This document shows, piece after piece, positions 22,112-57,802 of a stretch of 64,000 bases of DNA. Source of the DNA: Prevotella sp. (GTDB lineage: Bacteria > Bacteroidota > Bacteroidia > Bacteroidales > Bacteroidaceae); contig JAFQQY010000015.1 of the NCBI GenBank assembly GCA_017410365.1, positions 62,001 through 126,000 of the forward strand. Reading direction: 5' to 3'. The position numbers and the translations under genes are program-made. Position 1 is the first letter of the stretch; each line of letters opens with the position of its first letter. The notes beneath the pieces were generated by a model. The model searched no databases and was not told where the DNA came from. It saw nothing but the letters and a program-made list of their open reading frames with translations.

Positions 22112-22177
22112 TGAAACAATTTTATAAGCAAATGCAACATTTTGTATCGTACGTTAACGATAAAAACGTTAATTTTG
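22112..22177 (+). promoter_or_regulatory. symporter operon promoter with two operator heptamers
   Basis: -7 box TAATTTTG at 22170-22177. Proximal heptamer TGCAACA at 22133-22139 lies exactly 30 nt upstream of it, and a second heptamer TGAAACA at 22112-22118 starts 21 bp before the first. The same layout is found at five other promoters of the xylan region. A direct repeat ACGTTAA (22151-22157 and 22166-22172) lies between operator and -7 box and is found only here. Confidence 0.7.
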
Positions 22178-22211
22178 CATCCAGAAATAACAAAAAACAG
22201 AAACTGCAAAT

Positions 22212-23618
22212 ATGGCTAACGAAACACAACAAAAAGGCTTCTACAAGCTGTCATGGATGCAACGCATCGGATTCGGTGCCGGCGACATGGCACAGAACTT
22301 GATTTACCAGACGGTCAGCATCTGGCTGCTGTTCTTTTACACGAATGTTTATGGATTGGACCCTGGCACGGCTGCCGTGATGTTCCTTATTGTTCGTCTT
22401 GTCGATGTGCTGTGGGACCCTCTGGTAGGTGCTTTCGTTGACAAGGGCAACCCCAAATGGGGCAAATACCGTTCATGGCTCATTCTTGGCGGTATTCCTC
22501 TTGTTGGCTTAGCCATCCTCTGTTTCTGGAACGGTTTCAGCGGTTCTGTTGTCTATGCATACATCACTTACGTCGGCATGAGCATGTGCTATACATTAGT
22601 TAATGTGCCTTATGGAGCGTTGAACTCATCACTGACTCGCGACACTGAGGAGATAACAATCCTTACCTCCACCCGTATGTTCATGGCCAACCTCGGAGCT
22701 CTCATCGTGAAGTCGCTCCCAATGGTAATAGCCATCTTCGCCCCTGTGGCTGCCAATGGCGAAGCTATCACCAACACTCCCGAAGCGGCATCGGCATGGT
22801 TTATCACCATGACCATATTCGCACTGGCTGGTCTTGCACTTCTCGTGTTCTGCTTTGCTCAGTGCAAGGAGCGTGTGGTGATGGACCAGAAGGAGTCGGA
22901 GAACGTTAAGGTTAGCGACCTGTGGACTGAGTTCCTCCGCAACCGTCCTTTGCGCGTGCTGGCATTCTTCTTCATCACAGCCTTTGCCATGATGAGCGTG
23001 GGTAATGCTGCCGATGCTTATTTCATGAGTTATAATGTTGGTGCCACACCGCTGATGACCACCGCTTTCATGTGGCTTGGCACAATCCCTGCCTTCATCT
23101 TCATGCCTATGGTTCCTGCCATCAAGCGCAAGATTGGCAAGAAGGGCATGTTCTACCTTTTCCTCGGCACCGCCATCGTCGGCATGGCCATGATGTACAT
23201 CTTCGTACAGGTAGAGGCACTGAAGCGTTTCGATCTGCTCTGCATCGCACAGTTCGTAAAGAGCACAGGTATCATCGTTGCCACTGGTTATATGTGGGTT
23301 CTCGTTCCTGAAGTCGTTTCCTACGGAGAATACACTTCCGGCCGCCGCATTGCCGGCATCGTGAACGCCCTCACCGGTATCTTCTTCAAGGCTGGTATGG
23401 CATTAGGTGGTGTTGTTCCAGGTTTGGTACTCGCATGGGTTGGCTTCAATGCCGAACTGCCTAAGCAGACAGCATTGGCTGAACAGGGAATCTTGTGGCT
23501 GGTATGCGTAATCCCTGCCATACTGCTTCTCCTCGCCATGTTCATCATATCTAAATACGAACTTAGCGACGAGGTTATCGACAAGATTAACCGTGAGATA
23601 GAGCAGCGTAACAAATAG
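22212..23618 (+). CDS. GPH-family sugar:cation symporter (xyloside transporter)
   Basis: Inner-membrane transporter of the glycoside-pentoside-hexuronide:cation symporter family within the MFS, with about 12 membrane helices in 468 residues. Family features: FGAGDMAQNLIYQTVSIWLLFFYTN is the usual first helix, RLVDVLWDPLVGAFVDKGNPKWGKYRSW holds the conserved Asp residues and the loop 2-3 motif (given here in short pieces: DVLWDPL, KWGKYR), and VPYGALNSSLT follows. The next gene is a cytoplasmic GH43, so the likely cargo is xylobiose, xylotriose or arabinoxylo-oligosaccharides. The pair resembles the symporter/xylosidase pair reported from rumen Prevotella. Transcription starts from the operator-bearing promoter at 22112-22177. 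Confidence 0.92.
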   Translation: MANETQQKGFYKLSWMQRIGFGAGDMAQNLIYQTVSIWLLFFYTNVYGLDPGTAAVMFLIVRLVDVLWDPLVGAFVDKGNPKWGKYRSWLILGGIPLVGLAILCFWNGFSGSVVYAYITYVGMSMCYTLVNVPYGALNSSLTRDTEEITILTSTRMFMANLGALIVKSLPMVIAIFAPVAANGEAITNTPEAASAWFITMTIFALAGLALLVFCFAQCKERVVMDQKESENVKVSDLWTEFLRNRPLRVLAFFFITAFAMMSVGNAADAYFMSYNVGATPLMTTAFMWLGTIPAFIFMPMVPAIKRKIGKKGMFYLFLGTAIVGMAMMYIFVQVEALKRFDLLCIAQFVKSTGIIVATGYMWVLVPEVVSYGEYTSGRRIAGIVNALTGIFFKAGMALGGVVPGLVLAWVGFNAELPKQTALAEQGILWLVCVIPAILLLLAMFIISKYELSDEVIDKINREIEQRNK

Positions 23619-23647
23619 TTTGCCATAACTCAAGTTTAACTTGTTAA

Positions 23648-23792
23648 GAAGATATAGGAAGTTAAAGGAAGATATGCCGCTTTTCTGCGGCGAAGATAGA
23701 GGACGATACTTTGTCTAAAGTGGGTCAGCAATTATTCACATTCGCTCATCAACACATGTCATCTATCTCCTTCTATCTCCATCTATCTCCTT
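23648..23792. repeat. two short 10-bp tandem arrays and a hairpin between symporter and GH43
   Basis: 23648-23677 is three units of GAAG(A/T)TA(T/A)AG-type sequence with exact 10-bp period. 23676-23691 is a hairpin GCCGC-TTTTCT-GCGGC. 23763-23792 is three exact-period units of CTATCTCC(T/A)T. The purine array and the pyrimidine array could partly pair in the mRNA. Confidence 0.6.
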
Positions 23793-23864
23793 TTATCTGC
23801 AAACCGAGCAAAGCTTGAAATAGTTGAATTAATAAATAATGTATCATCAAATAAAAACAAAATT

Positions 23865-24872
23865 ATGAAAGAACCAAGATATCTTTTCCCAGACGATTAT
23901 ATGGCAGACCCTTCTGCCAACGTGTTCAACGACCGCCTCTATATCTACCCAAGTCACGACCGTGACAGCGGCGAGGCTTTCGACGACGATGGCGGACATT
24001 TCCAGATGAAGGACTATCATGTGCTGTCGCTCGACAATGTTGAGAACGGCGCGATTACAGACCACGGCGTAATCCTCGACGTTGAGCAGGTGGAATGGGC
24101 AGAAAAGCAGATGTGGGACAATGATGTTGTGGAGAAAGACGGCAAGTACTATCTCGTGTTCTCTGCCAAGGACTACAACGGCGTGTTCCATCTTGGTGTT
24201 GCCGTGGCCGACAATCCTGAAGGTCCTTTCAAACCAGAACCACACCCTATACGCGGTTCGTTCAGCATCGACCCTTGCGTGTTCAAGGACGACGACGGCG
24301 AGATATATTGCTATTTCGGTGGTCTGTGGGGCGGACAGTTGCAGTGGTACACCCTCACGCCTGAGGCATCAAAGAACAACGAGGGCGTGGTAATGGGTCC
24401 TGCTGCCGACAAGAAGACTCCTTTGTTCCTGAAGGAAGGCAGTCCTGCCGTACCGTCATTCGTTGCACGCATGTCCGACGACGTGAAGCAGTTCTGCGAG
24501 GCTCCTCATCCGGTTGTCATCGTCGATGAGAACGGCGAACCGCTCAAGGCCGAAGACCCTCACCGTTTCTTCGAGGCGTCATGGATGCACAAGTATAACG
24601 GCAAGTACTACTTCTCTTATTCAACAGGCGATTCTCATTTCCTATGCTACGCCATCAGCGACAACCCTTACGGACCGTTCACATTCAAGGGTGTAATCCT
24701 CGACCCTGTTGTTGGCTGGACCACCCACCACAGCATCGTTAAGTACAAGGGCGAGTGGTTCCTCTTCTATCACGACTGCGTTCCGTCTAACGACACCACA
24801 TGGCTGCGCTCTCTGAAGGTTCAGAAGCTCTACTACAATGAGGACGGCACTATTCAGAAGGTGAAGAACTAA
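23865..24872 (+). CDS. cytoplasmic GH43 beta-xylosidase / arabinofuranosidase
   Basis: No signal peptide, so it acts in the cytoplasm on imported oligosaccharides. The three GH43 catalytic carboxylates are visible: base Asp15 in MADPSA, pKa-modulating Asp136 in SIDPCVF, and acid Glu237 in FFEASWMHK. The 335-residue length is one beta-propeller. The sequence type (PSHDRDSGEAFDDDGGHF, WTTHHSIVKYKGEWFLFYHDC) matches GH43 subfamily 1 xylosidases of rumen Prevotella that are linked to a symporter gene. It follows the symporter by 246 bp without a visible terminator with a U-run and precedes the sigma factor by 9 bp. Confidence 0.93.
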   Translation: MKEPRYLFPDDYMADPSANVFNDRLYIYPSHDRDSGEAFDDDGGHFQMKDYHVLSLDNVENGAITDHGVILDVEQVEWAEKQMWDNDVVEKDGKYYLVFSAKDYNGVFHLGVAVADNPEGPFKPEPHPIRGSFSIDPCVFKDDDGEIYCYFGGLWGGQLQWYTLTPEASKNNEGVVMGPAADKKTPLFLKEGSPAVPSFVARMSDDVKQFCEAPHPVVIVDENGEPLKAEDPHRFFEASWMHKYNGKYYFSYSTGDSHFLCYAISDNPYGPFTFKGVILDPVVGWTTHHSIVKYKGEWFLFYHDCVPSNDTTWLRSLKVQKLYYNEDGTIQKVKN

Positions 24873-24881
24873 AAAGAAAGA

Positions 24882-25370
24882 ATGTCCAACACAGACATCA
24901 TAACAAACTTCTACAGCGAACACAGAGACGAACTTATAGCTTTCGTCAATTCGCGGTTGCACAATATCCCCGAGGCAGAGGATATTGTGCAGGAGGTTTT
25001 CATGCGTCTGCTCGCCAACAGCACCCCCATCTGCGAGAACACCGTTAGCGCACTGGTTTACACCTTGTGCCGCAATATGGTTGTCGATTGGTTCAGATGG
25101 CATGCCATAAGGAAGAACGCAAGATACGAGTGGCAAACCATAGAGGCGAGTGCCGATGCCTCCACATTGAGAAGAGACATAGCCGAGCACGTGGAGCATG
25201 GTTTGCTGCGCTTGCCTGAGGAGTGTCGCGATGTCTATCGCCTTCACATCTACGACGGCATGCAGGCAAAGGATATCTGCTTGCACACCGGATGGAAATA
25301 CAAGGCTGTGGAATATCGCTTGGGGCAGGCGCGAAAAGAAATAAGAAACTACCTCAAAGACATCTCATGA
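24882..25370 (+). CDS. ECF-family RNA polymerase sigma factor
   Basis: Predicted to direct RNA polymerase to a dedicated set of promoters. It has the two domains of minimal ECF sigma factors: sigma2 (about residues 8-75, with AEDIVQEVFMRLLAN and the DWFRWHA segment) and sigma4 (about 110-158, with LPEECRDVYRLHIYDGM, then AKDICLHTGWKYKAVEYRLGQARKEI as helix-turn-helix). The 162-residue length is normal. No anti-sigma (FecR-like) gene is adjacent. It starts 9 bp after the GH43 stop and its stop overlaps the GH67 start (ATGA), so it is embedded in the xylan operon. Its targets are unknown. Confidence 0.9.
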   Translation: MSNTDIITNFYSEHRDELIAFVNSRLHNIPEAEDIVQEVFMRLLANSTPICENTVSALVYTLCRNMVVDWFRWHAIRKNARYEWQTIEASADASTLRRDIAEHVEHGLLRLPEECRDVYRLHIYDGMQAKDICLHTGWKYKAVEYRLGQARKEIRNYLKDIS

Positions 25371-27295
25371 AAAAATTTTTCTTCATAATTATATGTCTGC
25401 TGACTGTCTCCCTTGTCAAAGCGGAAGACGGCAGCAGACTTTGGTTACGTTACGACAAGCTTAACACTGCCAAGGTAACGGGTCCTGACTGCAAGGCGAC
25501 AGAAATGCTGCGCCAGTATTATAACGGCAAGCAGGCTACGCTCGCTATCGATGCCACCATGCCCAACAACGGCGGCTATCGCATCAGCGGCGACAAGGAC
25601 AACATAACCTTATCGGCAGCCAGCGAACAGGGATTGCTCTACGGGGCGTTCTCACTGCTCAGGGGCGACATGGCTTCGTCTGAACCGTTCTTCTCTCTGC
25701 GTCTGCTCAACCACTGGGACAATATCGACGGTTCCATAGAGCGCGGATATGCGGGCGAAAGCATTTTCTGGAACGAGCAACTGGAAATAAACGAAAAACT
25801 CATTGAGGCATACGCCATGGCGAATGCTTCGATTGGCATCAACGGCACCGTGCTCAACAACGTGAACGCTTCGCCGAAGATGCTCACGCCAGAATATATG
25901 AACAAAGTGAAGGAGATAGCCGACATCCTCCGCCCATGGGGCATCAGGGTATATATATCTGTAAACTTCGGCTCACCAAAGGCATTGGGCGACCTCGACA
26001 CTGCCGACCCGCTCAACCGCAAGGTGAAGCGCTGGTGGAAGCAGAAGGCAAAGGAGATTTACGCTTTGATACCCGACTTCGGCGGTTTTCTCGTGAAGGC
26101 TAATTCTGAGGGACAGCCGGGACCTTTCGACTACAACCGCAGTCATGCCTATGGTGCCAACATGCTGGCTGATGCTCTAAAGCCTTTCGGCGGCATCGTG
26201 ATGTGGCGCAGCTTCGTTTATGGTGCCAAGCATAAGGGCGATGACCGTGTAAAACAGGCGGTATCGGAGTTCAAACCTTACGACGGCGAGTTCCGCGACA
26301 ACGTGATATTGCAGTCGAAGAACGGTCCGCTCGACTTCCAGCCTCGCGAGCCATACGCTCCTATCTTCGACCAGATGACTGCAACCAACCAGATGGCAGA
26401 GTTGCAGATTACTCAGGAGTATCTCGGACACAGCAAGCAACTGGTGTTCCTTGCTCCAATGTGGGAGGAGTTCTTCTCTTTCGTTTCGCCAAAGAAACTC
26501 AAGGGCATTGCGGGTGTGGCAAATATTGGTCTCGACGCCAACTGGTGCGGCCACCATTTCGCACAGGCCAACTGGTATGCTTTCGGTCGCTTAGCATGGA
26601 ACCCAGCTCTCAGTTCAAAGACAATAGCAGAGGAGTGGGTTGACCAGACTTTCATCAAGAACAGCAAGATTCCAGCAAAGAAGATACGCCGCCCTATGAA
26701 GCGAAAGATGAATGCCAGTCAGCAACTCATTGAGCGCCCCACCCCACTTGCAAAGGTTCAGCCGATGCTCATCGACATGATGCTTCGCAGTCGTGAGGCA
26801 TGCGTCAACTACATGATGCCGCTCGGCCTGCACCATATCTTTAAGTTCGACCATCACTACGGTCCTGAGCCAATGGGATTCAAGGAGAGCTACCCTATCG
26901 AGTGGTGCCCGGTTTATTATCATCAAGCCGACAAGCAGGGAATCGGTTTCAACCGCTCTACCACCGGCACCTCGGCCACTCAGCAGTACCCGGAGCCATA
27001 CCGCTCATTATATAACGACCCGACCACCTGCCCTGAGGAATATCTCCTTTGGTTCCACCATGTTGCTTGGAACCAAAAGATGAAGAGTGGACGCACACTC
27101 ATCAACGAACTTGACTATCGCTACCAGCAGGGAGTGAACGAGGTTATTGACTTCATCGCCATTTGGCAACAGGCAAAGCCATACATCGACCAGCAGCGTT
27201 GGCAGGAGGTTAACGACCGTCTCACCACTCAGTTGGTGGATGCTCGTGAGTGGCAACGTGTCTGCATGAACTACTACAAAAGTTTTTCAGAATAA
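25367..27295 (+). CDS. secreted GH67 alpha-glucuronidase
   Basis: Removes terminal (4-O-methyl)glucuronic acid from short glucurono-xylooligosaccharides. I start at the ATG at 25367, which overlaps the sigma factor stop and gives a clean signal peptide (MKKFFFIIICLLTVSLVKA); the frame is open further upstream but that part is a shadow of the sigma gene. GH67 motifs: GFLVKANSEGQPGP with the candidate acid Glu248, MWRSFVYG, NGPLDFQPREP with Asp323, and QITQEYLGH with the second base Glu. Length 642 after this start. It is exported, so it should act in the periplasm or outside. Last gene of the symporter operon. Confidence 0.95.
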   Translation: MKKFFFIIICLLTVSLVKAEDGSRLWLRYDKLNTAKVTGPDCKATEMLRQYYNGKQATLAIDATMPNNGGYRISGDKDNITLSAASEQGLLYGAFSLLRGDMASSEPFFSLRLLNHWDNIDGSIERGYAGESIFWNEQLEINEKLIEAYAMANASIGINGTVLNNVNASPKMLTPEYMNKVKEIADILRPWGIRVYISVNFGSPKALGDLDTADPLNRKVKRWWKQKAKEIYALIPDFGGFLVKANSEGQPGPFDYNRSHAYGANMLADALKPFGGIVMWRSFVYGAKHKGDDRVKQAVSEFKPYDGEFRDNVILQSKNGPLDFQPREPYAPIFDQMTATNQMAELQITQEYLGHSKQLVFLAPMWEEFFSFVSPKKLKGIAGVANIGLDANWCGHHFAQANWYAFGRLAWNPALSSKTIAEEWVDQTFIKNSKIPAKKIRRPMKRKMNASQQLIERPTPLAKVQPMLIDMMLRSREACVNYMMPLGLHHIFKFDHHYGPEPMGFKESYPIEWCPVYYHQADKQGIGFNRSTTGTSATQQYPEPYRSLYNDPTTCPEEYLLWFHHVAWNQKMKSGRTLINELDYRYQQGVNEVIDFIAIWQQAKPYIDQQRWQEVNDRLTTQLVDAREWQRVCMNYYKSFSE

Positions 27296-31653: not shown

Positions 31654-31658
31654 AAATT

Positions 31659-36288: not shown

Positions 36289-36304
36289 AAAGGTTTAAAA
36301 AACA

Positions 36305-45888: not shown

Positions 45889-45954
45889 CAAAATTAGCAA
45901 TAATTTCAAAAAAGACATATCGCAAATGTTTCATTTACTTTTTTGCTAGTTGTA
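45889..45954 (-). promoter_or_regulatory. GH98 promoter with operator heptamers
   Basis: Minus-strand -7 box TAATTTTG (45889-45896); TGAAACA (45927-45933) exactly 30 nt upstream; TACAACT (45948-45954), a weaker match, 21 bp further. The last seven bases of the distal site are almost at the 3' end of the GH115 gene upstream. Confidence 0.65.
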
Positions 45955-48540: not shown

Positions 48541-51038
48541 GTTATTTTCTTTCCTTTATATACAACAGACTTTGATGTACCGTCGGGCAGGGTCACGTTA
48601 AGGGTGATGCGCTTCTGCATGCCGCTATAACTGCCCTCACGACGGGCTATGGTGAGGGTGCGGCGGTCGTCGTCCCAACTGAATGCTATGCGACTGCATT
48701 CTCCATGGCGGTATGACTGACTGACGCCATCGTCTTCGTAAAGAGTAAACTGTGCATCTGCACCTGGGTAGATGCGCAGTTCGAGGGGTTCGGCGGTTGT
48801 CTGTGCAGCATACTGGCGCGGTGCTCCTACAGGAAGGATGCTGCCACCACGGGCAAAGACAGGGATAAAGGTCTTGTCAACAGTCGTTGTGACGTACTTT
48901 CCACCGGAATAATGCTTGCCTGTGCGGTAGTCATACCAGCCTGCTGCATTCATGGGCAGATAGGTGCGCCACTCTGTTACACCGGGTTCTGTTACCGGAC
49001 TGATAAGGAGTGCCGAGCCGAACATATATTCGTATTTCTGTTGCAAAGCCTCGGTGTCATTGCTGAAGTCGAAGACCAACGGACGCATAAGCGTATAACC
49101 ACTGGCAGAAACCTCGGCAGCATGGCTATAGATATAAGGCAACAGGCGATAACGCTCTTCCAAACTCTTGGCTATTATGCTCTTTGCCTCATCGCCATAA
49201 CACCATGGTTCGGTATTACTCTGATAACCATGCACACGCATGAGTGGAAGATAAACAGAGGTTTGAACCCAACGGAGCAAACGTTCTATATATGCCTTAT
49301 CCTTATACTGATTTCCAGGACGGAAGAAACCGCCTGCATCGTAAGTCCACCAAGGCACACCAGCTGCCTGCATACCCAATCCACCTGAAATCTGACGGCG
49401 CAGCGTCTCCCAGTCGTTGCCCACATCACCGCTCCACAAGGCTGTTCCATAACGCTGAATACCGGCAAAGCCGCTGCGGGTGAGTATCATTGGACGCTGT
49501 TCTGGACGGTCGGTTAGCAAACCTTCATAAACAGTCTTGTTTACAAGCATAGGATAAACATTACGCACCTGTTCGCCCGACCACTTGCCTTTGTTTACCC
49601 TACGTCCAGTAAGGTCATCGTTCTCTGGTTCTGTTGCATCCTGCCACCATGCATCGATACCCAACGGCACAAGACGACTGCTGAAGTTGTTCCTGTAGGC
49701 GCGTGCTGCATCGTCGGAGAAGAAGTCTATCCAGTCGGTGCCAGGTATATAATTGTTGTCAGCAACCATCTGGCGCCCCACCTCAGAACGCTTGTCTATC
49801 TTCGACCACACAGACACCATGAAGCGCATGTTCATATTGTGAAGACTGTCGGTCAACTGTTTTGGGTCTGGATAATGGGCTTCGTCAAACTTCATTGAGT
49901 TCCAACCGTACTTGCCCCAATACTGCCAGTCCTGCACTATGACGTCAATCGGCAACTGCTCGTTGCGGAAGCGGTTGGCAGTCTCTAGAATCTCTTTCTG
50001 TGAGTGGAAACGCTCACGGCAGTGGATATATCCCATTGCCCACTGCGGCATCATAGGCACCTCACCGGTTAGTTGGCGATAACTTGCCACTACCTCATCG
50101 GCATTGCCCACAAAGACGGTGTAGTCAACAGCATCGGCGAATGGAGAGCGGAGCACTGTCTCGTCATCTACCTTATTATAATATACAACAGGCGAATCGC
50201 CTCTTGACAGTTCTGCCTTCAACTCATGCTTGCCTGCCTCAAGATGCACGATGACCGAGGCGGTAGGCGGCAACCATATATTCTGCATCTCTATCACATT
50301 CTTCCCGTCAATCTCCAGATTGTGACGGCGTGCCATGTTCTGACCGACATCGAGCAGCAAGGCATAGTCGCCCGTTTCCTTGATGTCAAGTGTGGCGGTG
50401 TAGATATTACGCTCACGCACCTCACGCTTGCCTCCCTCGGTGGAGGTAACGTCAACAACCTCGCGTCCTGCCACCCCATTGCCCTTCTGCAGTTTCACAC
50501 TGCCATCGGCAGGGTTGTAATCGGTAAGTCCGTAGTTGTTCCACAACAGTCCGTAGCCCTTGCTCGAAATCAACATCGGAATGGATATCTGCGTATTCAC
50601 CTGCGTCAGGCGTCTCATCAGTCCACGGATGTTGGTATAACCGTCCTGAAACTGACCGAGTCCATAGATAAACTCATCATCAGGCGAAACAAACGAGAGA
50701 CGTGCCTCATGAGTAGCTTCACCGCCTACGGTAGCAGCCTGCAACTGATGAGCTGTGGCAGTGAACACCTTACGACCGTTCTTGTCGCTGACGGTTATCA
50801 CCTGACGCTCAGCATCAACATCAACCTTTACATCACTGCCGTCTGTCTCTTCTGTACTGACATATATCCAGTTGGGTAAATCATTCTTCAACTCGCCTTC
50901 AGCATATTGAATGCGAACAGCATTTTTAGCCACATAAGTCAATGTTACAACACCCTTGCCAAACTGGATTTGCCTGGCTTCCACTGTGATGAACATCACA
51001 ACGACTATTAAAAGGAATATAGTTCTTATTGTTTTCAT
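48528..51038 (-). CDS. secreted GH31 alpha-xylosidase-type enzyme with PA14 insert
   Basis: Retaining alpha-glycosidase; probably alpha-xylosidase or alpha-glucosidase. Signal peptide about residues 1-21. GH31 motifs: GLGQFQDGYTNIRG in the N-terminal beta-domain; a PA14-type insert at about residues 215-310 (IYTATLDIKETGDYALLLDVG); the barrel with PMMPQWAMGYIHCRERFHS, IVQDWQYWGKYGW, WWQDATEPEND with nucleophile Asp467, and LWSGDVGNDW with acid/base Asp538. PA14 inserts of this kind are known in alpha-xylosidases. Second gene of the operon, 11 bp after CE15-GH97. Confidence 0.93.
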   Translation of the reverse strand: MKTIRTIFLLIVVVMFITVEARQIQFGKGVVTLTYVAKNAVRIQYAEGELKNDLPNWIYVSTEETDGSDVKVDVDAERQVITVSDKNGRKVFTATAHQLQAATVGGEATHEARLSFVSPDDEFIYGLGQFQDGYTNIRGLMRRLTQVNTQISIPMLISSKGYGLLWNNYGLTDYNPADGSVKLQKGNGVAGREVVDVTSTEGGKREVRERNIYTATLDIKETGDYALLLDVGQNMARRHNLEIDGKNVIEMQNIWLPPTASVIVHLEAGKHELKAELSRGDSPVVYYNKVDDETVLRSPFADAVDYTVFVGNADEVVASYRQLTGEVPMMPQWAMGYIHCRERFHSQKEILETANRFRNEQLPIDVIVQDWQYWGKYGWNSMKFDEAHYPDPKQLTDSLHNMNMRFMVSVWSKIDKRSEVGRQMVADNNYIPGTDWIDFFSDDAARAYRNNFSSRLVPLGIDAWWQDATEPENDDLTGRRVNKGKWSGEQVRNVYPMLVNKTVYEGLLTDRPEQRPMILTRSGFAGIQRYGTALWSGDVGNDWETLRRQISGGLGMQAAGVPWWTYDAGGFFRPGNQYKDKAYIERLLRWVQTSVYLPLMRVHGYQSNTEPWCYGDEAKSIIAKSLEERYRLLPYIYSHAAEVSASGYTLMRPLVFDFSNDTEALQQKYEYMFGSALLISPVTEPGVTEWRTYLPMNAAGWYDYRTGKHYSGGKYVTTTVDKTFIPVFARGGSILPVGAPRQYAAQTTAEPLELRIYPGADAQFTLYEDDGVSQSYRHGECSRIAFSWDDDRRTLTIARREGSYSGMQKRITLNVTLPDGTSKSVVYKGKKITCKF

Positions 51039-51049
51039 TTATATAGGTT

Positions 51050-53926
51050 TTATTCTTTAATTTTCATGACAAAACCGCCACGCGACTTGCACTTGATTGT
51101 CTTTGGCAACTTCTTCACTGTCTTGATTTCCCATCCCTTGCCATCGGCAAAGACGGTGGCATATGTATTGTCGCCTACAATATCCTCAACAGCGAGCGAC
51201 AGACTAATCGGTTCGTCTGTTCCGTTGATACCTGCCACATACCATGTATTGCCACTGCGTCGCGCCATAACCACATGATTTCCTGGATAACCGCTCAGCA
51301 GGCGTGTCTCGTCCCAAACGGCAGGGAGTTCCGAAAGGAACTGCTGCACCTCGCTCGGTTGAGCATAATAACTCTCAGGACGGTCGGCAAGGTGCTGCAA
51401 ACCAGATTCAAAGAGTACGGTAAGTGCCAGTTCGTGGGCATCGCTCGTGATGTGCGGATGCTGCGAATCAGAGAAGGCGCAAGGGGTATAGTCCATCGGT
51501 CCTATCACATTGCGGGTGAAAGGCAACGTTGCATTATGAGCTGCCGCCTTGCTGGTAAAGGTAGGCACGTTATTGTACCACTCCGCACCATAGACAGCCT
51601 CCATCGTCAGCATGTTCGGATAGGTGCGCTGCCATCCGCGCGGAATGGTGGCACCGTGGAAGTTGACCAGCAGATGGTGGCGTGCGGCACACTCCATCAG
51701 TTCTATATAATAGTCCATATTCTTCTGGTTGTCGCCAGAGAAGAAGTCAATCTTCACTCCTGCAACACCTAGTTTCTCGCACCATGCGAACTCCTTCTCA
51801 CGGTCTTCGGGTTTGTTAAGGCGGAACTTCGGACCGGGAGCACCGTTTATCCATCCCACAGAAGAGTTGTACCATATCATCGGTCTTACGCCTTTTAACT
51901 TGGCATATGCCACGGCATCCTCGATTGTCTTGCCGTTCTTCATCTCGTCCCACTCCGCATCTATCAGCACATACGGCAGTTTAAGTCGCTCTGCCATATC
52001 CACATACTGGCAGATGATGTCGTAGTTGTTGCTGCCATGATTATGTGCCCAGTATATCCATGACACCACACCTGGCTTTATCCACTGCGTATCAGTAAGA
52101 CGGCATGGTTCTGAAACATCGGTGACAAGGGTCGATTCCACCACGTCTGCCAGTGAACCGACTATCATCGTGCGCCATGGGGTATGCCAATGACCGCTTA
52201 TGAGAAGGTCGTTCTTCTCTGGACAAACACGATATTCTTCCACATTACGGTCGTTGCGAAGACTTGAAGCACTCTGACGGCGACTGATATCTGCCTCCGT
52301 TATCAGTGCGAATACGCTGTCGGCTGCCTCAACAAGAGCGGGATAACCCCAGTGACGTTTCTTCTGATTGCCACTTTCCGCCATCGGGAAGAAAGCCTCG
52401 TATGGTTCTGTCCACGGTTGAATCCATCGTTTCCTCCCCTCAGGTATGATATAGGCGGTATGCTCCTCGCCTATTTGCTCACTGTTCAATCCTGTGAGTT
52501 CGTAACGGAAAGCAATTCCGTCGTTATAAAGACGCCACACCTGAGTGGTACGTCCATCGAGAACAACGGCATATTCGTTGGCTTCGTTGATGCAGTGCAG
52601 ACGCTTGCCTGCCAGCATGGTGTAGTCAGCCTTCAGATGACGCAAGAACGACAAATTGCGCCTGCCGCCCGCCTTATTGCCTATGCCGTCGGCACTGATG
52701 TTCATCACGTGCTTTCCCTGATATTCCACCACATAACTGTTGTCGCGATACGACAGAGACAGTTTGCCATTGGGCGACAATGCCTTCACCGGCACCAGAA
52801 AACGGTCGATGTATTCTTCGACTATCGCATACTGACTCTCATGCAGTTGGCAGTGCTTATGTCCGCCAACAATGCTCCATGCCATGCGGTCGGCAATGCC
52901 GAAACGTTGCCACACCTTATGAACTGCCTTTGCAGAAACCTCCATGGCATCGTCAGCCAACCATTTATAGTCGGGATTTCCCAAGAGCAGGAGGGCGCGC
53001 GGACAAACCATCGCACACAACTCATGCTGGTCGTAAGGCAGTCGATATACATTGTCACCACTGAAATTGGCGCGCATACTCTCCAAGAACCAATGATAGT
53101 CGGTGCGCTCCAGACTCTCCACATCCTGCTTTCCATGCGATGCCCGCCACGCCGCAGCACCACCGCCACCAGGTTCCTGTGCTATGGTCAGTGCTACACG
53201 CTCGTCAAAAGCACCGCAATAGAGGGCCATCTTTCCGGCATAAGAGCAACCGGTAACACCTATGCGCCTGATATCAATCTTCGTCTTCTCTTCGCCCAAC
53301 AGTTGCAGACCGTCAATCAACCGGCTCAGTCCCCATGCCCAGTGACTGTATGCCCCGTTGTCTTTCAGTTGCGGATACAACCGGTCGATATTATGCTCTC
53401 CCCTCTCCTTGTGTTTGCGCCACTGGGAGTAGTCGTTCACCTGTGCCTCATGGAATACCATGATGGCTATCGGACGGTTCTCAAAGATTTTCTTCGGCAG
53501 CGAAATGCCACTTGTACCTATCATCAGGGCATAGGGAGCATTGCCTGTTTTTGGGTATCTTATCGTTGAACGCAACGTAAGAGTCTCTCCCTCCACGGTA
53601 ACGTCAACCACCAGCGTGTCGCCATTCATGCGCGCACTGATGCTCTCTCCGTCAACGGCAGGTTTCTTGCCGATGCCATAGTGCTGTATCATCGCACCAA
53701 TCTCGTTGCGGCGACGTGCCCAGTCGGCAAATGTTGCAACACCTTCCAGAGCATCCGGCAATTCCTTCACCTCTGGCAACTGGTCGGCAGGCAACATATC
53801 AGGCACGGCAAGGGCAGCACCAGTATTCTCTACATCGTAAACCAGCGGAACGTTTGCTGCGTGCTGACAATGGCCACAAATGGCAGTTGCCAGCATCGCA
53901 AACAACATTAATAATCTTACACGCAT
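51050..53926 (-). CDS. secreted CE15-GH97 fusion enzyme
   Basis: Two catalytic domains in one 958-residue chain after a signal peptide. Residues about 30-380 match CE15 glucuronoyl esterases, which cut the ester between glucuronoxylan and lignin: GVTGCSYAGKMAL with Ser228, TIAQEPGGGG with Glu251, and VGGHKHCQ with His358. The usual Arg after the Ser (GCSR) is Tyr here. Residues about 384-958 are a complete GH97: SPNGKLSLSY, VLIDAEWD, MIWYNSSVGW, GVKIDFFSGDNQ with nucleophile Asp727 and, 55 residues on, Glu782 as acid/base (retaining type). First gene of the operon with GH31 and GH115. The fusion suggests that the ester and an alpha-linked sugar are met on the same chain. Confidence 0.9.
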   Translation of the reverse strand: MRVRLLMLFAMLATAICGHCQHAANVPLVYDVENTGAALAVPDMLPADQLPEVKELPDALEGVATFADWARRRNEIGAMIQHYGIGKKPAVDGESISARMNGDTLVVDVTVEGETLTLRSTIRYPKTGNAPYALMIGTSGISLPKKIFENRPIAIMVFHEAQVNDYSQWRKHKERGEHNIDRLYPQLKDNGAYSHWAWGLSRLIDGLQLLGEEKTKIDIRRIGVTGCSYAGKMALYCGAFDERVALTIAQEPGGGGAAAWRASHGKQDVESLERTDYHWFLESMRANFSGDNVYRLPYDQHELCAMVCPRALLLLGNPDYKWLADDAMEVSAKAVHKVWQRFGIADRMAWSIVGGHKHCQLHESQYAIVEEYIDRFLVPVKALSPNGKLSLSYRDNSYVVEYQGKHVMNISADGIGNKAGGRRNLSFLRHLKADYTMLAGKRLHCINEANEYAVVLDGRTTQVWRLYNDGIAFRYELTGLNSEQIGEEHTAYIIPEGRKRWIQPWTEPYEAFFPMAESGNQKKRHWGYPALVEAADSVFALITEADISRRQSASSLRNDRNVEEYRVCPEKNDLLISGHWHTPWRTMIVGSLADVVESTLVTDVSEPCRLTDTQWIKPGVVSWIYWAHNHGSNNYDIICQYVDMAERLKLPYVLIDAEWDEMKNGKTIEDAVAYAKLKGVRPMIWYNSSVGWINGAPGPKFRLNKPEDREKEFAWCEKLGVAGVKIDFFSGDNQKNMDYYIELMECAARHHLLVNFHGATIPRGWQRTYPNMLTMEAVYGAEWYNNVPTFTSKAAAHNATLPFTRNVIGPMDYTPCAFSDSQHPHITSDAHELALTVLFESGLQHLADRPESYYAQPSEVQQFLSELPAVWDETRLLSGYPGNHVVMARRSGNTWYVAGINGTDEPISLSLAVEDIVGDNTYATVFADGKGWEIKTVKKLPKTIKCKSRGGFVMKIKE

Positions 53927-53952: not shown

Positions 53953-54018
53953 CAAAATTAATGATTTAATTGGGAGTAACCTTATATTAACGTTTCACAT
54001 TGTATTGCAAATGATTCA
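53953..54018 (-). promoter_or_regulatory. CE15-GH97 operon promoter with operator heptamers
   Basis: Minus-strand -7 box TAATTTTG (53953-53960); TGAAACG (53991-53997) exactly 30 nt upstream; TGAATCA (54012-54018) 21 bp further. Confidence 0.65.
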
Positions 54019-54141: not shown

Positions 54142-56187
54142 TCAGTTTATCAAGAACACCTTCTGGTTGCCCTTATAGGTGCACTTTACCGTTGCCCTGC
54201 CATCAACAATCTTGCTCACCTCTATCTTCACATTTGGATTGTCGGCTGTTGCCTTCAGTTCCGAACCTGCTGTCAGCGGAGCATATACCTGATAACGTGT
54301 TGCATCGGTGTAGCCGTTGGCATTGGTGCTGCGTATCGGTGTTGCAGGTATTGTAAGACGCTTGCCGTCGGCAGTAATCGTTATCTGTGGCACCTGTGGT
54401 CGCTCAAACTTCTCGCCCTTCTTAGAGAAGCCGATGCCGTGGAGGTCGAAGAGTCCCACCGGACGCTGTGGCTGCTGACGGCTGCCGTAGCGCTGCTGGT
54501 TGTTGGCAGGTTGCTTCACCTCTGGTCCTTCTGCCACGAGGTAGATGGCGTGCTTGCCTGTCAGTCCTTCAACTGCCGGCACTGCCACCTGGTAGTTCCT
54601 TGCCACGCGCGGAGCGTTGGCTGGCACTTCGATGACACCTATCTCCTTACCGTTCCATACATTATTATTATAAGGACCGTCGAGCATCACGCTAATCTTG
54701 AATGCACCCTGACCACCAGGGGTGAGATTTACGTTAAGCACTGTGCCGTCGCCCTTTGCCGTACCTGTAAACGCCTTGATGCCCTTTGAGTCTTGTGCAA
54801 GACCTCCGAAGCCGAAATACTTGAAACCAACGATACCGCGGTTGGTAATGCCGGCAAGGTCCATTCCGTCGTTCCATACATCATGATTGTCCTGCATCCA
54901 GTTGTTGCCTGTCATATAGCAGGCGGTACCTGCTGAGTACCAGTTGTATGGCGGCAAACCGAAGATATGGAAACCTTCACTTGTCACCTCTGCACCGGTA
55001 TAGCATGTGCCGTCGCTAGCAGAAGCTGTCCACTCGTTATTCTCTGTATATGGGTCGTAGGCAGTAATCTTCACTACACCACCCTTTGCCACCTTCTTCT
55101 TGTCCCATGTAATCTTCACCGGAGCCACCATTGCCTGACGGGCGTTGCCGAAACCGCGTGGCGGACGATGGTAGAACACGTACCACTGACCGTTGATTTC
55201 TTCCAGTGAACCGTGGGTATTGTGAGCGGCATTGGTTGTTGTCAGTTTGCTGCCATCCTCGTTTGGCACTACCCCACGAGAGTCAACAAGCACACCTCCT
55301 GAGCGCCAAGGACCGAGCGGAGAGTCGCCGAAAGCATAGCGCAAAGCTGAGTTGGTAGAACCAAGTCCATAGTCAGGACCTGAATAACCAGAGAACACCA
55401 TCACGTACTTATTGCCCACCTGACGGATAGAAGATGCCTCAAAGAAATTGAAGTCGAGCGGATTCTGTCCTTTATAGAGAGCCTTATATACAGAGCCTTC
55501 CTTATCCAACAGTTTTCCGTCGCGGCTGCTGGCAGGGATGAACGGGTCGATAATCTCTGTGCCCGGACGCTTGGCATACATATTGTTCTGGTCGAGTTCG
55601 AAAGCTGTTGAGTGCTGGAAACCGTAGAACACGTATGCACGGAAGCCCTTGTCGTAGTCAGGGTCTTTCTTGTTGGTGATATTCTCGATGAACACCGACG
55701 GGTCGAAGTCGATGATTGAACCTGGCAGGCACTGACGACCGTCAGCTGTAAGGTTTACCGGTGTAAACGGACCGTCGGGGCGGTCGCCCTTGCACACCAT
55801 TGCCACGCGTCTCCAACCGCGAGAGTGCGGATAGAGGTAGTAGGTCTTCTTACCAGTCTTGCGGTCTTTCACCTCAACAAGATCGGGAGCGAACATCGTG
55901 TCCCACTGGCCATCCACGAAATGAGTGAAGATTGGACCTTCGTCACGCCAGTGTGTAAGGTCTTCAACAGGTGCCGACCACATGCGGATGTCTGGTCCGC
56001 AGTAAGCAGAGTAAGTAACATCGTGTGAGCCGATGATATACGCACGGTACTTTCCCGGCTGGTCGGGATCTTCAAACACTCTCGGCTCGCCATCGGGCAG
56101 ATGTTCCCACAATGGCAAGTATGGGTTTTGTGCCTGTGCACAAGTCGCTGCTATGGCAAGCAGCACTGTTGATAATAATTTTTTCAT
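54142..56187 (-). CDS. secreted GH43 with C-terminal carbohydrate-binding-type domains
   Basis: Predicted arabinofuranosidase or xylosidase. Signal peptide residues 1-19. The propeller contains EDPDQPGKYRAYIIGSHD, MFAPDLVEVKD, IDFDPSVFIEN and FNFFEASSIRQVGN as the Asp/Asp/Glu sites, then THGSLEEINGQWYVFYHR. From about residue 375 a CBM6-like beta-sandwich follows (NRGIVGFKYFGFGG, HAIYLVAEGPEV), then a Gln/Pro-rich linker (PANNQQRYGSRQQPQRP) and about 100 more residues of beta-type sequence ending in CTYKGNQKVFLIN. It starts 4 bp after the stop of the LRR gene, so both are on one transcript. Confidence 0.9.
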   Translation of the reverse strand: MKKLLSTVLLAIAATCAQAQNPYLPLWEHLPDGEPRVFEDPDQPGKYRAYIIGSHDVTYSAYCGPDIRMWSAPVEDLTHWRDEGPIFTHFVDGQWDTMFAPDLVEVKDRKTGKKTYYLYPHSRGWRRVAMVCKGDRPDGPFTPVNLTADGRQCLPGSIIDFDPSVFIENITNKKDPDYDKGFRAYVFYGFQHSTAFELDQNNMYAKRPGTEIIDPFIPASSRDGKLLDKEGSVYKALYKGQNPLDFNFFEASSIRQVGNKYVMVFSGYSGPDYGLGSTNSALRYAFGDSPLGPWRSGGVLVDSRGVVPNEDGSKLTTTNAAHNTHGSLEEINGQWYVFYHRPPRGFGNARQAMVAPVKITWDKKKVAKGGVVKITAYDPYTENNEWTASASDGTCYTGAEVTSEGFHIFGLPPYNWYSAGTACYMTGNNWMQDNHDVWNDGMDLAGITNRGIVGFKYFGFGGLAQDSKGIKAFTGTAKGDGTVLNVNLTPGGQGAFKISVMLDGPYNNNVWNGKEIGVIEVPANAPRVARNYQVAVPAVEGLTGKHAIYLVAEGPEVKQPANNQQRYGSRQQPQRPVGLFDLHGIGFSKKGEKFERPQVPQITITADGKRLTIPATPIRSTNANGYTDATRYQVYAPLTAGSELKATADNPNVKIEVSKIVDGRATVKCTYKGNQKVFLIN

Positions 56188-56191
56188 ATAG

Positions 56192-57703
56192 TTATATATT
56201 TGGTTTTATATTCTTTTTTGAATTAACAAAATATCCATGTTCTATAACTGGAATATTTTCTTCCGAGATACTTATAGACATCAAGTTTGGGCAAGAGAGA
56301 TATGGTGAATTATCAAACGTCAAATCTTTCTTACTTTTTACAAATATATTATTAGGTTCATAGATAACACTTGTCAAACTGACACATCTAAAGAATGAAT
56401 TTCTTTTCAGTTCCGTATTAGCAGGAACAACTAATTGATAAAGACTATTACAATACATAAAGGCAGATTCTTCCACTTTCGATATATTGTCAGGAATAGA
56501 GAATACCGCAGGAGTGTTCATGCCGCAGAATGCATACTTACCAATAGTGCTGACGCTCTTGGGAATTACGGCTACGGAACTGCCACAAACAATCTTATTT
56601 GACTGTGTTTCAATGATACAGTTACAGCCTTCACGTGAATCATAAACTTTGTTATCTTTATCGACCACTATGTTTACTAAATTCACACAGCCAGAGAAGG
56701 AATCTGCATCAATAGTTTTTACACCTTCAGGAATGAATACTTTTGTAAGTCGTCTGCAACCCTTAAACGCCGAAGCGTATATTCTCTTTATGCTGCTATC
56801 GATAGTTGTATTGTAGCAACCTGCAAAAAGTACAGAATCACATATCAAAGCATTATTTTCCTTATTTGTGTACCAGTTTTTATTAGAAGGGGAAACAGTA
56901 AAGGATGAGAGATTCTCACAGTTGGTAAACGGATTCTGACAGAAATAAATCTCTGCGTCAGGGAGGTGGAATGAAGTAAGGGAACAACACCCATCGAATA
57001 CTGACTGTCCAAGGTCTAATGTACAGTCATCAGGCAATACAATCTTCTTCAGTTGAAAACAATCAGAAAAAGCATACTCCTCTATAACCTTTATACTTTG
57101 GGGAATATTTAGGGAAACCAGACCTGTACATCCACGGAACGCCCCTCTTGATATACGAGATATGCTTTGGGAAAATGTCGTTCCTGCACATCCCAACTCT
57201 ATTGCATCATCAGATGTACGAATTACTGCATTACACTGTTCACGGGAGTCGAAAACCGGATTTGACTTATTTACATCAATCGATTTTAATTCCGGACAAT
57301 TATAGAAAATACATTCAGCCAACGATGACATTGTTGATGGGAAACAGACGGAATGGAGATTGGAACAACCGTAAAAAGCAAATTTACCAATTGCTTTTAT
57401 ACCTTCATCTATTACTAGCTTTTTAATAAAGCAACAGTTCATGAAACCTTTTGCTGTTATTTTATCTATTTGGTATGTCTTGCCTTTGTCCTGAATTTTT
57501 GAAGGTATTCGTAAGGTTTCATAGCTATTATCAAGGACAGCATCCTTATTCATGGAGATGCTGTAACTTGATGGCCTGTCCGGACAAGGTGTCAAACGAA
57601 ACAACCCAACAACAATGCTATTATCCGAATAACAAGCTAATGAAATTCCATAGAATAATATAAAAAATAAGATTCTTAGGATATTCAAAATATTTCCATT
57701 CAT
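56192..57703 (-). CDS. BspA-type leucine-rich repeat protein
   Basis: Surface or periplasmic protein built of LRR_5-type repeats: several units of the pattern IGKFAFYGCSNLHSVCFP, ISRGAFRGCTGLVSLNIP, IEEYAFSDCFQLKKIVLP, IYASAFKGCRRLTKVFIP, each about 23 residues. The N-terminus is hydrophobic (residues 8-22) and acts as a signal or anchor. Such proteins in Prevotella and relatives bind other proteins, cells or surfaces. The region is AT-rich compared with the GH43 gene that follows it after 4 bp. It carries the shared operator at its promoter, so it appears to be co-regulated with the xylan enzymes, perhaps as an adhesin for fibre (inference). Confidence 0.88.
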   Translation of the reverse strand: MNGNILNILRILFFILFYGISLACYSDNSIVVGLFRLTPCPDRPSSYSISMNKDAVLDNSYETLRIPSKIQDKGKTYQIDKITAKGFMNCCFIKKLVIDEGIKAIGKFAFYGCSNLHSVCFPSTMSSLAECIFYNCPELKSIDVNKSNPVFDSREQCNAVIRTSDDAIELGCAGTTFSQSISRISRGAFRGCTGLVSLNIPQSIKVIEEYAFSDCFQLKKIVLPDDCTLDLGQSVFDGCCSLTSFHLPDAEIYFCQNPFTNCENLSSFTVSPSNKNWYTNKENNALICDSVLFAGCYNTTIDSSIKRIYASAFKGCRRLTKVFIPEGVKTIDADSFSGCVNLVNIVVDKDNKVYDSREGCNCIIETQSNKIVCGSSVAVIPKSVSTIGKYAFCGMNTPAVFSIPDNISKVEESAFMYCNSLYQLVVPANTELKRNSFFRCVSLTSVIYEPNNIFVKSKKDLTFDNSPYLSCPNLMSISISEENIPVIEHGYFVNSKKNIKPNI

Positions 57704-57736
57704 ATTGCTAATTGAATACAGGTATTACCTTGTCTG

Positions 57737-57802
57737 CAAAGTTAACCATTTTATATTTCCTTTATTTATATAAATGTTGCAGATTCTTTTGTCTTCGTAA
57801 CA
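57737..57802 (-). promoter_or_regulatory. LRR-GH43 promoter with two operator heptamers
   Basis: Minus-strand -7 box TAACTTTG (57737-57744); TGCAACA (57775-57781) exactly 30 nt upstream; TGTTACG (57796-57802) 21 bp further, with ACGAAGACAAAA as at the GH3 promoter. Confidence 0.72.

What the first reader, a model, noticed from the sequence alone, without database searches (positions are those of the whole stretch)
22112..57802. Shared operator in six xylan promoters: TG[C/A]AAC[A/G] exactly 30 nt upstream of TAnnTTTG, with a second heptamer 21 bp further
Seen directly: at 22133 (+), 36282, 39030, 45927, 53991 and 57775 (all -), a heptamer TGCAACA (3x), TGAAACA (2x) or TGAAACG (1x) is followed after exactly 30 nt by a -7 box. 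In five of the six a related heptamer (TGAAACA, TGTGACG, TACAACT, TGAATCA, TGTTACG) starts exactly 21 bp upstream of the first, i.e. two helical turns on the same face. Promoters of gapA, mscL, guaA, tRNA-Phe, the zinc-ribbon gene and the 16.4-kb gene lack it at that position. Established: AraC-type DNA-binding domains, including those of hybrid two-component sensors that control xylan genes in Prevotella and Bacteroides, bind direct repeats. Inference: this is the binding site of one xylan activator, not encoded in this window, and the LRR protein is part of its regulon.
Basis: partly seen in the sequence, partly recalled or inferred. Interest (0 to 1): 0.88.

Follow-up and report, generated by a model that had tools for sequence, protein, structure and literature searches.

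The report
Xylan switch with feedback RNA
A Prevotella-type gut or rumen bacterium appears to use one repeated DNA landing site to switch on its xylan-digesting genes, and the same kind of site also sits before a small RNA, matching no catalogued family, that could base-pair with the start of the switch protein's own message and hold it in check.

Summary
In detail: TGMAACR-N30-TAnnTTTG occurs six times in the window (0.01 expected) and twice more in the 3.28-Mb genome. The element is a direct repeat of about 21 bp set 30-31 nt upstream of the -7 box. Fourteen elements, some with a degenerate half, lie in one 82-kb xylan super-locus. Elsewhere on the contig, 0 of 31 gene-proximal -7 boxes carry the pair. 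Across the genus the motif goes with one hybrid two-component regulator (HTCS), encoded 33.7 kb right of the window: 124 of 156 genomes with it, 11 of 93 without.

One element precedes no ORF but a ~130-nt structured RNA absent from Rfam, found in 36 of 249 genomes, beside the HTCS gene in 30. Its conserved loop is antisense to the HTCS start: 12 nt or more in 10 of 22 genomes, against 0 of 386 other ORF starts. Best reading: an HTCS-activated small RNA that limits HTCS translation. Binding, transcription and repression are untested.

The parts
22112..22177 (+). Operator-promoter element: TGAAACA / TGCAACA / 30 nt / TAATTTTG, before the symporter-GH43-sigma-GH67 genes
   Evidence: 8 of 12 related symporter promoters with a nearby -7 box keep both half-sites
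36244..36309 (-). Element before GH97; proximal TGAAACA only, distal half absent (CCGTATG)
38992..39057 (-). Element before GH3: TGTGACG / TGCAACA / 30 nt / TAACTTTG
45889..45954 (-). Element before GH98: TACAACT / TGAAACA / 30 nt / TAATTTTG
53953..54018 (-). Element before the glucuronoyl esterase-GH97 gene, with GH31 and GH115 genes following: TGAATCA / TGAAACG / 30 nt / TAATTTTG
   Evidence: Pfam
57737..57802 (-). Element before the BspA-type LRR gene and the 681-aa gene: TGTTACG / TGCAACA / 30 nt / TAACTTTG
22212..27295 (+). Genes after the element: MFS_2 symporter, GH43, sigma-70 region 2/4 protein (ECF-like by size), GH67; operon inferred
   Evidence: Pfam
34246..36183 (-). Gene after the element: GH97
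   Evidence: Pfam
36373..38955 (-). Gene after the element: GH3
   Evidence: Pfam
42729..45857 (-). Gene after the element: GH98
   Evidence: Pfam
45958..53926 (-). Genes after the element: glucuronoyl esterase-GH97 (51050-53926), GH31 (48528-51038), GH115 (45958-48540); operon inferred
   Evidence: Pfam
54142..57703 (-). Genes after the element: LRR protein (56192-57703) and 681-aa protein without a significant Pfam hit (54142-56187)
   Evidence: Pfam
63122..64000 (-). 3' part of a GH10 gene (C11:125122-127728) whose element lies outside the window at C11:127680-127746; further elements, the HTCS and the RNA outside the window are listed in the full report

Best explanation
The six window sites are operators of one membrane-spanning hybrid two-component activator (HTCS), by gene context a xylan regulator, whose gene lies 33.7 kb beyond the window's right end. 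SHOWN: a direct repeat of TGnnACR about 21 bp apart, with the proximal half 30-31 nt upstream of a TAnnTTTG box; 14 elements over an 82-kb xylan super-locus that includes the HTCS gene; co-occurrence of motif and HTCS across the genus. INFERRED: two receiver-AraC domains bind side by side on one DNA face next to RNA polymerase (the AraC araI parallel and TAnnTTTG as the -7 box of the main sigma factor are recalled or from the finding) and turn the genes on when the periplasmic propeller senses xylan fragments. The HTCS activates its own synthesis, through GH5-HTCS here and through an operator directly before the HTCS gene in some relatives. EXTENSION: the element beyond GH5 drives a ~130-nt noncoding RNA. 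SHOWN: conserved sequence, covarying terminator, half-site at the same 30-nt position, and a conserved loop antisense to the HTCS start region in many but not all species. INFERRED: the RNA is made, pairs with the HTCS mRNA and blocks translation, so that an activated HTCS limits its own level. My confidence is about 0.9 for the operator, 0.85 that the RNA is real and under the HTCS, and 0.65-0.7 that it represses HTCS.
For: Operator: six exact sites against 0.01 expected; 6 of the 8 exact sites in the genome lie in this window. A matrix from the six finds four new sites of 18 bits or more on C11, all in the xylan locus around the HTCS (next best 13.7; ten simulated contigs average 0.1 at that level). 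12 of 23 gene-proximal boxes inside C11:84-166 kb carry the pair, 0 of 31 outside. In 20 loci fetched for a close HTCS and not for the motif, TG..AC[AG] occurs 26 times at gap 30 and 14 times at 51 against 0.56 per offset. Among 249 genomes of the genus, this one included, 135 carry the exact pair (310 copies; 1 with the reversed pattern): 124 of 156 with the HTCS receiver-HTH, 11 of 93 without. Pfam of the genes after 28 such hits: GH43 6, MFS_2 symporter 5, GH3 3, GH97, GH5 and SASA 2 each, GH98 and GH127 1 each. RNA: model R1 scores 102.7 bits here, 30.9 at the next place in the genome. Found in 36 of 249 genomes, among them 33 of the 36 whose HTCS receiver-HTH is at least 83% identical; same strand just upstream of the HTCS in 30 of 36. 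8 stem pairs changed on both sides, 0 of 500 shuffles as high. 22 of 23 RNAs have [CA]GA[AG]ACA 30-31 nt from a -7 box. Perfect antisense match of 12 nt or more to the HTCS start in 10 of 22, to other ORF starts in 0 of 386. TAGTTTTACCAT occurs in the genome only at the HTCS start and, complemented, in the RNA.
Against: I have no binding, transcript or expression data for this organism. 11 of 93 genomes without a close HTCS carry the motif, and a locus whose HTCS is only 33% identical (L111) has four copies, so several HTCS paralogues probably share this DNA preference. Window site 36282 lacks a distal half, and the elements before GH10 and the RNA have degenerate halves. The main SusC/SusD operon has only a weak AC..AC site at C11:183452. 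The co-occurrence test is not corrected for phylogeny or overall glycan-degrading capacity. The generic repeat geometry is not seen in 56 HTCS loci of other families. For the RNA: 7 of 22 genomes have under 10 nt of perfect match to the HTCS start as I assigned it. Of seven further loci scored (one, L251, repeats L094), three reach 12 nt, one of them at -32. 3 of 36 genomes with a close HTCS gave no RNA match at the cut-off. Duplex energies for regulon genes as a set were not significantly better than for other genes (p = 0.11).
Confidence: 0.85

Rival explanations
1. The motif is a general Prevotella HTCS operator recognised by several paralogous HTCS regulators, so the six genes may answer to more than one of them and the regulon is not defined by xylan alone.
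For: 11 of 93 genomes without a close HTCS still carry the pair; L111, whose HTCS is 33% identical, has four copies and L110 (35%) one; some downstream genes are GH97, GH127 or a paralogous symporter.
Against: In this genome 0 of 81 promoters around 14 other AraC/HTCS loci have AC at both half-sites, and the looser test gives 1 of 81; pairs with at most one mismatch are on C11 in 8 of 10 cases.
Confidence: 0.3
2. Another regulator uses these sites, for instance a stand-alone AraC protein or the sigma factor encoded at window 24882-25370.
For: The genome has 21 AraC-type HTH matches, and the sigma gene sits after one of the elements.
Against: All elements keep a TAnnTTTG box, which an ECF sigma would not be expected to need (recalled); the motif goes with the HTCS across genomes and surrounds its gene.
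Confidence: 0.07
3. The RNA is a 5' leader or attenuator of the HTCS transcript acting in cis, not a free small RNA.
For: It lies upstream of the HTCS gene on the same strand in 30 of 36 genomes; read-through would bring the antisense loop and the HTCS start into one molecule.
Against: It ends in a predicted terminator with a T-run; in this genome a GH5 gene and a second element lie between RNA and HTCS; four of the 20 fetched loci (L230, L231, L235, L238) have a separate full element between terminator and HTCS gene.
Confidence: 0.25
4. The six promoters look alike because they are recent copies of one another, not because of selection on a binding site.
For: They lie in one locus with related gene families.
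Against: The 30-nt spacers share only 5-16 of 30 positions (mean 11.2), and the 60-nt upstream flanks 12-25 of 60; the half-sites and box are what agrees.
Confidence: 0.02

Closest known systems
HTCS direct-repeat operators predicted in Bacteroides thetaiotaomicron (Ravcheev et al. 2013, PMC3878776; passages read)
   Same: AraC-type HTCS, two conserved sites in direct repeat, average 21 bp apart, before polysaccharide genes; related HTCS share similar motifs.
   Different: Another family and regulon (xylan, Prevotellaceae); here the repeat is also held 30-31 nt from the -7 box, a geometry not mentioned in the passages I read; a noncoding RNA is among the proposed targets.
XynR of Prevotella bryantii (Miyazaki et al. 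2003; paper not held, title seen only in reference lists)
   Same: Multidomain positive regulator of xylanase genes in a rumen Prevotella (from the title).
   Different: Orthology and operator could not be compared; sequence and text were not available.
Xylan PULs of Segatella copri and P. bryantii (PMC11784079; passages read)
   Same: HTCS and GH5_21 genes in a PUL with tandem SusC/SusD and GH10.
   Different: No operator is described: the words 'motif', 'promoter' and 'binding site' do not occur in its main text.
OmrA/OmrB small RNAs and EnvZ/OmpR (PMC12692685; passages read)
   Same: Small RNAs activated by a two-component regulator that repress that regulator's own mRNA.
   Different: Enterobacteria, separate kinase and regulator, other experimentally supported targets; here a single-protein HTCS of Bacteroidota, an RNA gene next to its proposed target, no demonstrated activity.
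FopS/GibS and DonS RNAs of Bacteroides PULs (PMC11697453, PMC7366714; passages read)
   Same: Noncoding RNAs that act on polysaccharide utilisation genes, FopS near start codons.
   Different: FopS is a 14-member family of ~65-70 nt with a 5' seed aimed mainly at susC mRNAs; DonS is a divergent antisense RNA to susC. This RNA is normally single-copy, longer, behind an HTCS-type element and aimed at the HTCS.

Membership tests
HTCS operator (direct repeat of AraC-type HTCS) | Two similar half-sites in direct orientation about 21 bp apart | tested here: met
   5 of 6 window sites, two of them weak; peaks at gaps 30 and 51 in other loci; repeat geometry (30,21) found without a preset heptamer in Prevotellaceae loci. 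22 bp also occurs.
HTCS operator (direct repeat of AraC-type HTCS) | Lies before polysaccharide utilisation genes of the HTCS locus and related loci | tested here: met
HTCS operator (direct repeat of AraC-type HTCS) | Bound by the HTCS receiver-HTH | not testable with these tools
   needs EMSA or DAP-seq; SHIP receiver motif present, linked to phosphorylation-controlled binding in PMC11253607 (passages)
HTCS regulator | Reg_prop propeller, Y_Y_Y, HisKA, HATPase, Response_reg and AraC HTH in one chain | tested here: met
   (Y_Y_Y just under its curated cut-off)
XynR orthologue | Orthology to P. bryantii XynR | not tested
   XynR paper not held; its sequence was not sought
FopS small RNA family | Multicopy, ~65-70 nt, 5' seed against susC | tested here: not met
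   one strong match in this genome, one in 35 and two in 1 of the 36 genomes with it; three SusC-like starts on C11, recognised by eye, were not favoured over shuffles. FopS features are from passages of PMC11697453; its sequence was not compared.
Known Rfam family | Match to any Rfam 15 model | tested here: not met
   (L035 and L036, E up to 1): only a below-threshold rdlD hit elsewhere
Two-component-activated feedback small RNA (OmrA/B-like circuit) | RNA under the operator of the regulator | tested here: inconclusive
   by sequence only: 22 of 23 RNAs have a half-site 30-31 nt from a -7 box; control by the HTCS itself not testable here
Two-component-activated feedback small RNA (OmrA/B-like circuit) | Pairs with and represses the regulator's mRNA | tested here: inconclusive
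   complementarity shown in part of the species; repression untested

The most novel reading that the evidence does not exclude
A clade of Prevotella xylan HTCS regulators carries a built-in RNA brake. The HTCS activates, through the same direct-repeat operator as its enzyme genes, an otherwise undescribed and normally single-copy RNA encoded just upstream of its own gene. The RNA's hairpin loop pairs with the HTCS start codon region, giving negative feedback at translation on top of positive transcriptional autoregulation. I saw no earlier report of RNA-based feedback on a hybrid two-component system in the listings (open PMC papers, listings partly capped).
Probability: 0.66. Interest if true: 0.86.

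Novelty: new variant of a known kind. Interest (0 to 1): 0.78.

Why it matters
HTCS regulators are a major class of switches for dietary-fibre use in gut Bacteroidota (PMC11253607, abstract start). In the passages I read, their operators are predictions from comparative genomics (PMC3878776), with promoter fragments of two systems bound in EMSA (PMC11253607), and no promoter geometry is given. A promoter-anchored operator that can be searched exactly (direct repeat about 21 bp apart, 30-31 nt before TAnnTTTG) lets xylan regulons be read from sequence, including candidates no annotation would place there, such as an LRR protein, a GH98 and a distant esterase-like hydrolase. The linked RNA suggests that these bacteria limit how much sensor-activator they make with a dedicated antisense RNA. 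That has an enteric parallel, but I found no report of it for HTCS. It is directly testable by northern blot, reporter and base-pair exchange.

Tried and rejected
A first two-half-site pattern with a fixed TATAA segment gave no match because I mis-set the spacing; corrected. A duplex-energy screen of the RNA over C11 gene starts did not separate 13 regulon genes from 83 others (p = 0.11) and is not used as evidence; of the five genes checked against shuffles only the HTCS start stood out, and that is how the complementarity was first noticed, so this genome is the discovery case and the relatives are the test. A generic test of whether all HTCS promoters share the 30/21 geometry found it in Prevotellaceae loci but not in 56 loci of other families, so I do not claim it for HTCS in general. 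A search for antisense segments upstream of other HTCS genes gave nothing convincing: 63 loci, mean 7.6 nt, the best (14 nt, L095) being a member of the same clade and the next 12 nt (L111). A coding reading of the RNA was rejected by eye because frame and length of the short ORF from its AUG differ between species (sequences). The exact hit at C50:49306 and the one-mismatch hit at C46:65618 are probably chance: the first lacks a distal half, the second has an odd box (TAGGTTTG). Plasmid search of window 1-1000 gave no match. Conservation of the LRR gene's operator in relatives was not tested.

Rows dropped or handled by hand: L220 is left out (no HTCS start found by my rule). In one search, L261, L271 and L272 of ten could not be scored, the start chosen for L270 is probably wrong, the start of L250 was re-set, and L251 has the same sequence as L094. 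Of these loci only L248, L250, L252, L267 and L269 entered. L087 of 29 could not be judged (contig ends 164 nt after the site). In one search, L194-L202 (second pieces or paralogues) are not in the count of 21. The 20 loci are 20 of the 36 genomes with a close HTCS and were not chosen for the motif. The control ORF starts are mechanical ORFs of 150 aa or more on both strands. Genome counts were typed by hand from the tables.
Full report
SETTING. The window is C11:62001-126000 of a 3.28-Mb, 55-contig genome (89.4% complete by the tool's figure). The closest relatives of its HTCS come from Prevotellaceae records, many of them rumen MAGs, so I treat it as a Prevotellaceae bacterium; no name is given. 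Pfam shows xylan and glucuronoxylan enzymes on the right two thirds of the window: GH67, GH115 twice, GH3, GH43 three times, GH98, GH31, GH97, a glucuronoyl esterase-GH97 fusion, GH30, GH10 and a sugar symporter.

THE OBSERVATION. All six sites are real, correctly placed, and the only exact matches in the window (0.01 expected, 0 of 100 shuffles reach six). In the whole genome the pattern occurs 8 times: six here, one at C11:155797 in the same xylan locus and one on C50 without a distal half (the reversed control pattern gives 1). A gap spectrum that assumes no distance puts the heptamer at 30 nt six times among 60 boxes and three times in all at 109 other distances.

THE WHOLE REGULON. A matrix trained on the six sites finds four more at 18 bits or above on the 189-kb contig (28.6, 22.6, 22.6 and 18.6 bits; next 13.7; ten simulated contigs average 0.1), all between 155 and 166 kb. 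Four further elements have a 31-nt gap, before GH5, GH43, GH95 and GH10 genes. All 14 lie in C11:84-166 kb. Among gene-proximal -7 boxes, 12 of 23 in that interval have the pair, 0 of 31 on the rest of the contig, and 1 weak match of 81 around 14 other AraC/HTCS loci (criterion set after the sites were known). With at most one mismatch in the two-half pattern there are ten places in the genome, eight on C11 (with two mismatches 16 more, against 9 for the reversed control at up to two). Of the other two, C18:20065 lies 32 nt before an alpha/beta-hydrolase gene with acetyl-xylan-esterase-like similarity and is probably a distant member. The main SusC/SusD operon has only a weak site (C11:183452). 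The promoters are not copies of one another: 30-nt spacers agree at 5-16 positions.

PARTS OUTSIDE THE WINDOW (C11 coordinates, all minus strand; window coordinate = C11 minus 62000). Elements: 127680-127746 (31-nt gap, proximal half CGACACG, before GH10; the first ATG of that ORF lies upstream of the box and a later start is assumed), 130212-130278 (31, before GH95), 152317-152383 (31, before GH43), 155797-155862 (30, before a 1095-aa protein), 157423-157488 (30, before a 498-aa protein), 159375-159440 (30, before a 509-aa protein, directly after the HTCS gene), 165183-165249 (31, before GH5), 165531-165596 (30, GAATACG / CGAAACA, before the RNA). HTCS gene: 159701-163594. RNA: about 165395-165523. 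Elsewhere in the genome: C18:20065-20130 (plus strand).

THE REGULATOR. An HTCS of 1297 aa lies at C11:159701-163594 with the full domain set, its best solved relatives being HTCS proteins, and the SHIP receiver motif that PMC11253607 links to phosphorylation-controlled binding (passages). Elements lie on both sides of it. Here it follows GH5 on the same strand, with no TAnnTTTG box in the gap between them.

CONSERVATION. The exact pair occurs in 135 of 249 genomes of the genus, this one included; 310 copies against 1 for the reversed pattern. In 29 loci returned, one per genome, 28 have an ORF starting 15-122 nt after the box (the 29th contig ends too soon; the longest ATG ORF within 330 nt was taken). 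Pfam of the 28 gives GH43 six times, MFS_2 symporter five, GH3 three, GH97, GH5 and acetylesterase (SASA) two each, and GH127, GH98 and a TonB-dependent receptor plug once each, besides esterase families. Of 21 relatives of the window symporter in genomes chosen for the HTCS (46-72% identical over the N-terminal piece), 12 have a -7 box within 70 nt upstream; 8 of these 12 have both half-sites, 3 have one full and one degenerate half, 1 has none. In six of the eight the repeat is 22 bp. In 20 loci fetched for a close HTCS, the heptamer TG..AC[AG] occurs 26 times at gap 30 and 14 at 51 against 0.56 per offset, while 16 other loci of this genome give 1 and 2. In 24 Prevotellaceae HTCS loci the counts are 19 and 26 against 1.3 per offset; in loci of other families there is no such peak. 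Presence of the motif follows presence of the HTCS receiver-HTH: 124 of 156 against 11 of 93 genomes (Fisher p about 8e-27, not corrected for phylogeny). Against exclusive use by this HTCS: the 11 genomes, and a locus with an HTCS only 33% identical that has four copies. I take the DNA preference to be shared with some paralogues.

THE RNA. The element at C11:165531-165596 is followed by no gene but by ~130 nt ending in a predicted terminator. blastn shows this stretch conserved in relatives beside the HTCS gene. An alignment of 20 sequences gives two hairpins: AUUAGUU-AUGGUAA-AACUAAU, and a terminator whose lower stem covaries while its tip, CCYGUAUGNGAAUAYMGG with a GNRA-type loop, hardly changes. 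Eight pairs show changes on both sides; 0 of 500 shuffles and none of six slid versions reach the covariation score (the tool warns that relatedness alone can beat shuffles). The RNA of this genome folds better than all 200 shuffles (z -3.8). Rfam has no match. The model scores 102.7 bits at this place and 30.9 at the next in the genome. It is found in 36 of 249 genomes, two copies in one of them. 33 of the 36 genomes whose HTCS receiver-HTH region is at least 83% identical have it, 3 of the other 213 do. It lies on the same strand within 6 kb upstream of the HTH codons in 30 of 36; in the other six RNA and HTCS are on different contigs. In 22 of 23 examined copies a half-site (CGAAACA 15, AGAAACA 4, CGAGACA 3) sits 30 nt (one 31) before a -7 box (the best-scoring box within 400 nt was taken).

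ANTISENSE TO THE HTCS START. The hairpin loop and its stem, UUAUGGUAAAACUAA, are complementary to the sequence at the HTCS start codon. The longest perfect match is 21 nt in one genome, 14 in three, 13 in one and 12 in five including this one. 10 of 22 reach 12 nt, 0 of 386 other ORF starts do; 15 of 22 reach 10 nt against 3 of 386; 7 of 22 stay below 10 nt. In this genome the 12-mer TAGTTTTACCAT occurs exactly twice, at the HTCS start and, complemented, in the RNA (reversed control 1). In two genomes (L095, L267) a G in the RNA where most have A is met by a C in the HTCS leader where most have T; direction and independence of these changes are not established. The cognate pairing of 27 RNAs and starts scores above each of 20,000 permuted pairings (not phylogeny-corrected). 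Of seven further loci scored, one a repeat of L094, three reach 12 nt, one of them away from the start.

MECHANISM. Shown by sequence: operator geometry, its distribution, the RNA's conservation and structure, the half-site before it and its complementarity. Inferred: binding, activation by xylan fragments, transcription of the RNA, repression of HTCS translation. The net circuit would be positive transcriptional autoregulation held in check by an RNA made under the same control. A cis-acting leader is the main rival for the RNA; the intervening GH5 gene and second element here, and the separate elements before the HTCS gene in four of 20 relatives, speak for a separate transcript.

KNOWN AND NEW. 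HTCS operators as direct repeats averaging 21 bp were predicted for 16 Bacteroides thetaiotaomicron HTCS (PMC3878776, passages), so the operator is a new member of that kind. Small RNAs that repress their own two-component activator are known in enterobacteria (OmrA/B and ompR-envZ; PMC12692685, passages). PUL-linked RNAs of Bacteroides (FopS, GibS, DonS; passages) act on other targets. The listings of searches in the open PMC subset (73 showed 15 of 380 papers, 92 showed 10 of 15) held no HTCS-controlled or HTCS-directed RNA that I could see from titles, abstract starts and the passages read. I therefore rate the whole as a new variant of a known kind.

Noticed in passing
window 24882-25370 (+): A short sigma factor ORF (sigma-70 regions 2 and 4, ECF-like by size) lies between GH43 and GH67 behind the symporter, an unexpected place for a sigma factor.
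   Followed up: no
window about 57842-57912: A long inverted repeat (TTTGGTATACTGCC ... GGCAGTATACCAAA) lies just upstream of the LRR operator, followed by a short direct repeat (acactttttcaagggaat) near 57950-58005.
   Followed up: no
window about 60655-60745 and 63055-63120: CCTAGG-rich short repeats fill the gaps between the GH30 and GH10 genes.
   Followed up: no
L217:9124 (C18:20065-20130): The only operator pair found off contig C11 with a plausible promoter, 32 nt before an alpha/beta-hydrolase gene with acetyl-xylan-esterase-like similarity: probable distant regulon member.
   Followed up: partly
C11:155797-155862: The -7 box and spacer overlap a terminator-like hairpin (AAAGCCCTT..AAGGGCTTT): the upstream gene's terminator may be part of the next promoter.
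   Followed up: no
C11:183452: The main SusC/SusD operon has only a weak AC..AC version of the site (ATTTACG / GCGGACG).
   Followed up: partly
C11 near 163650, 167130 and 172060: CT-rich repeats (AACTCCTGAACTCC-like) recur in front of the HTCS, GH30 and SusC-like genes.
   Followed up: no
G213:C34:19094-19201: One genome of the genus has a second copy of the RNA on another contig than its HTCS gene.
   Followed up: no
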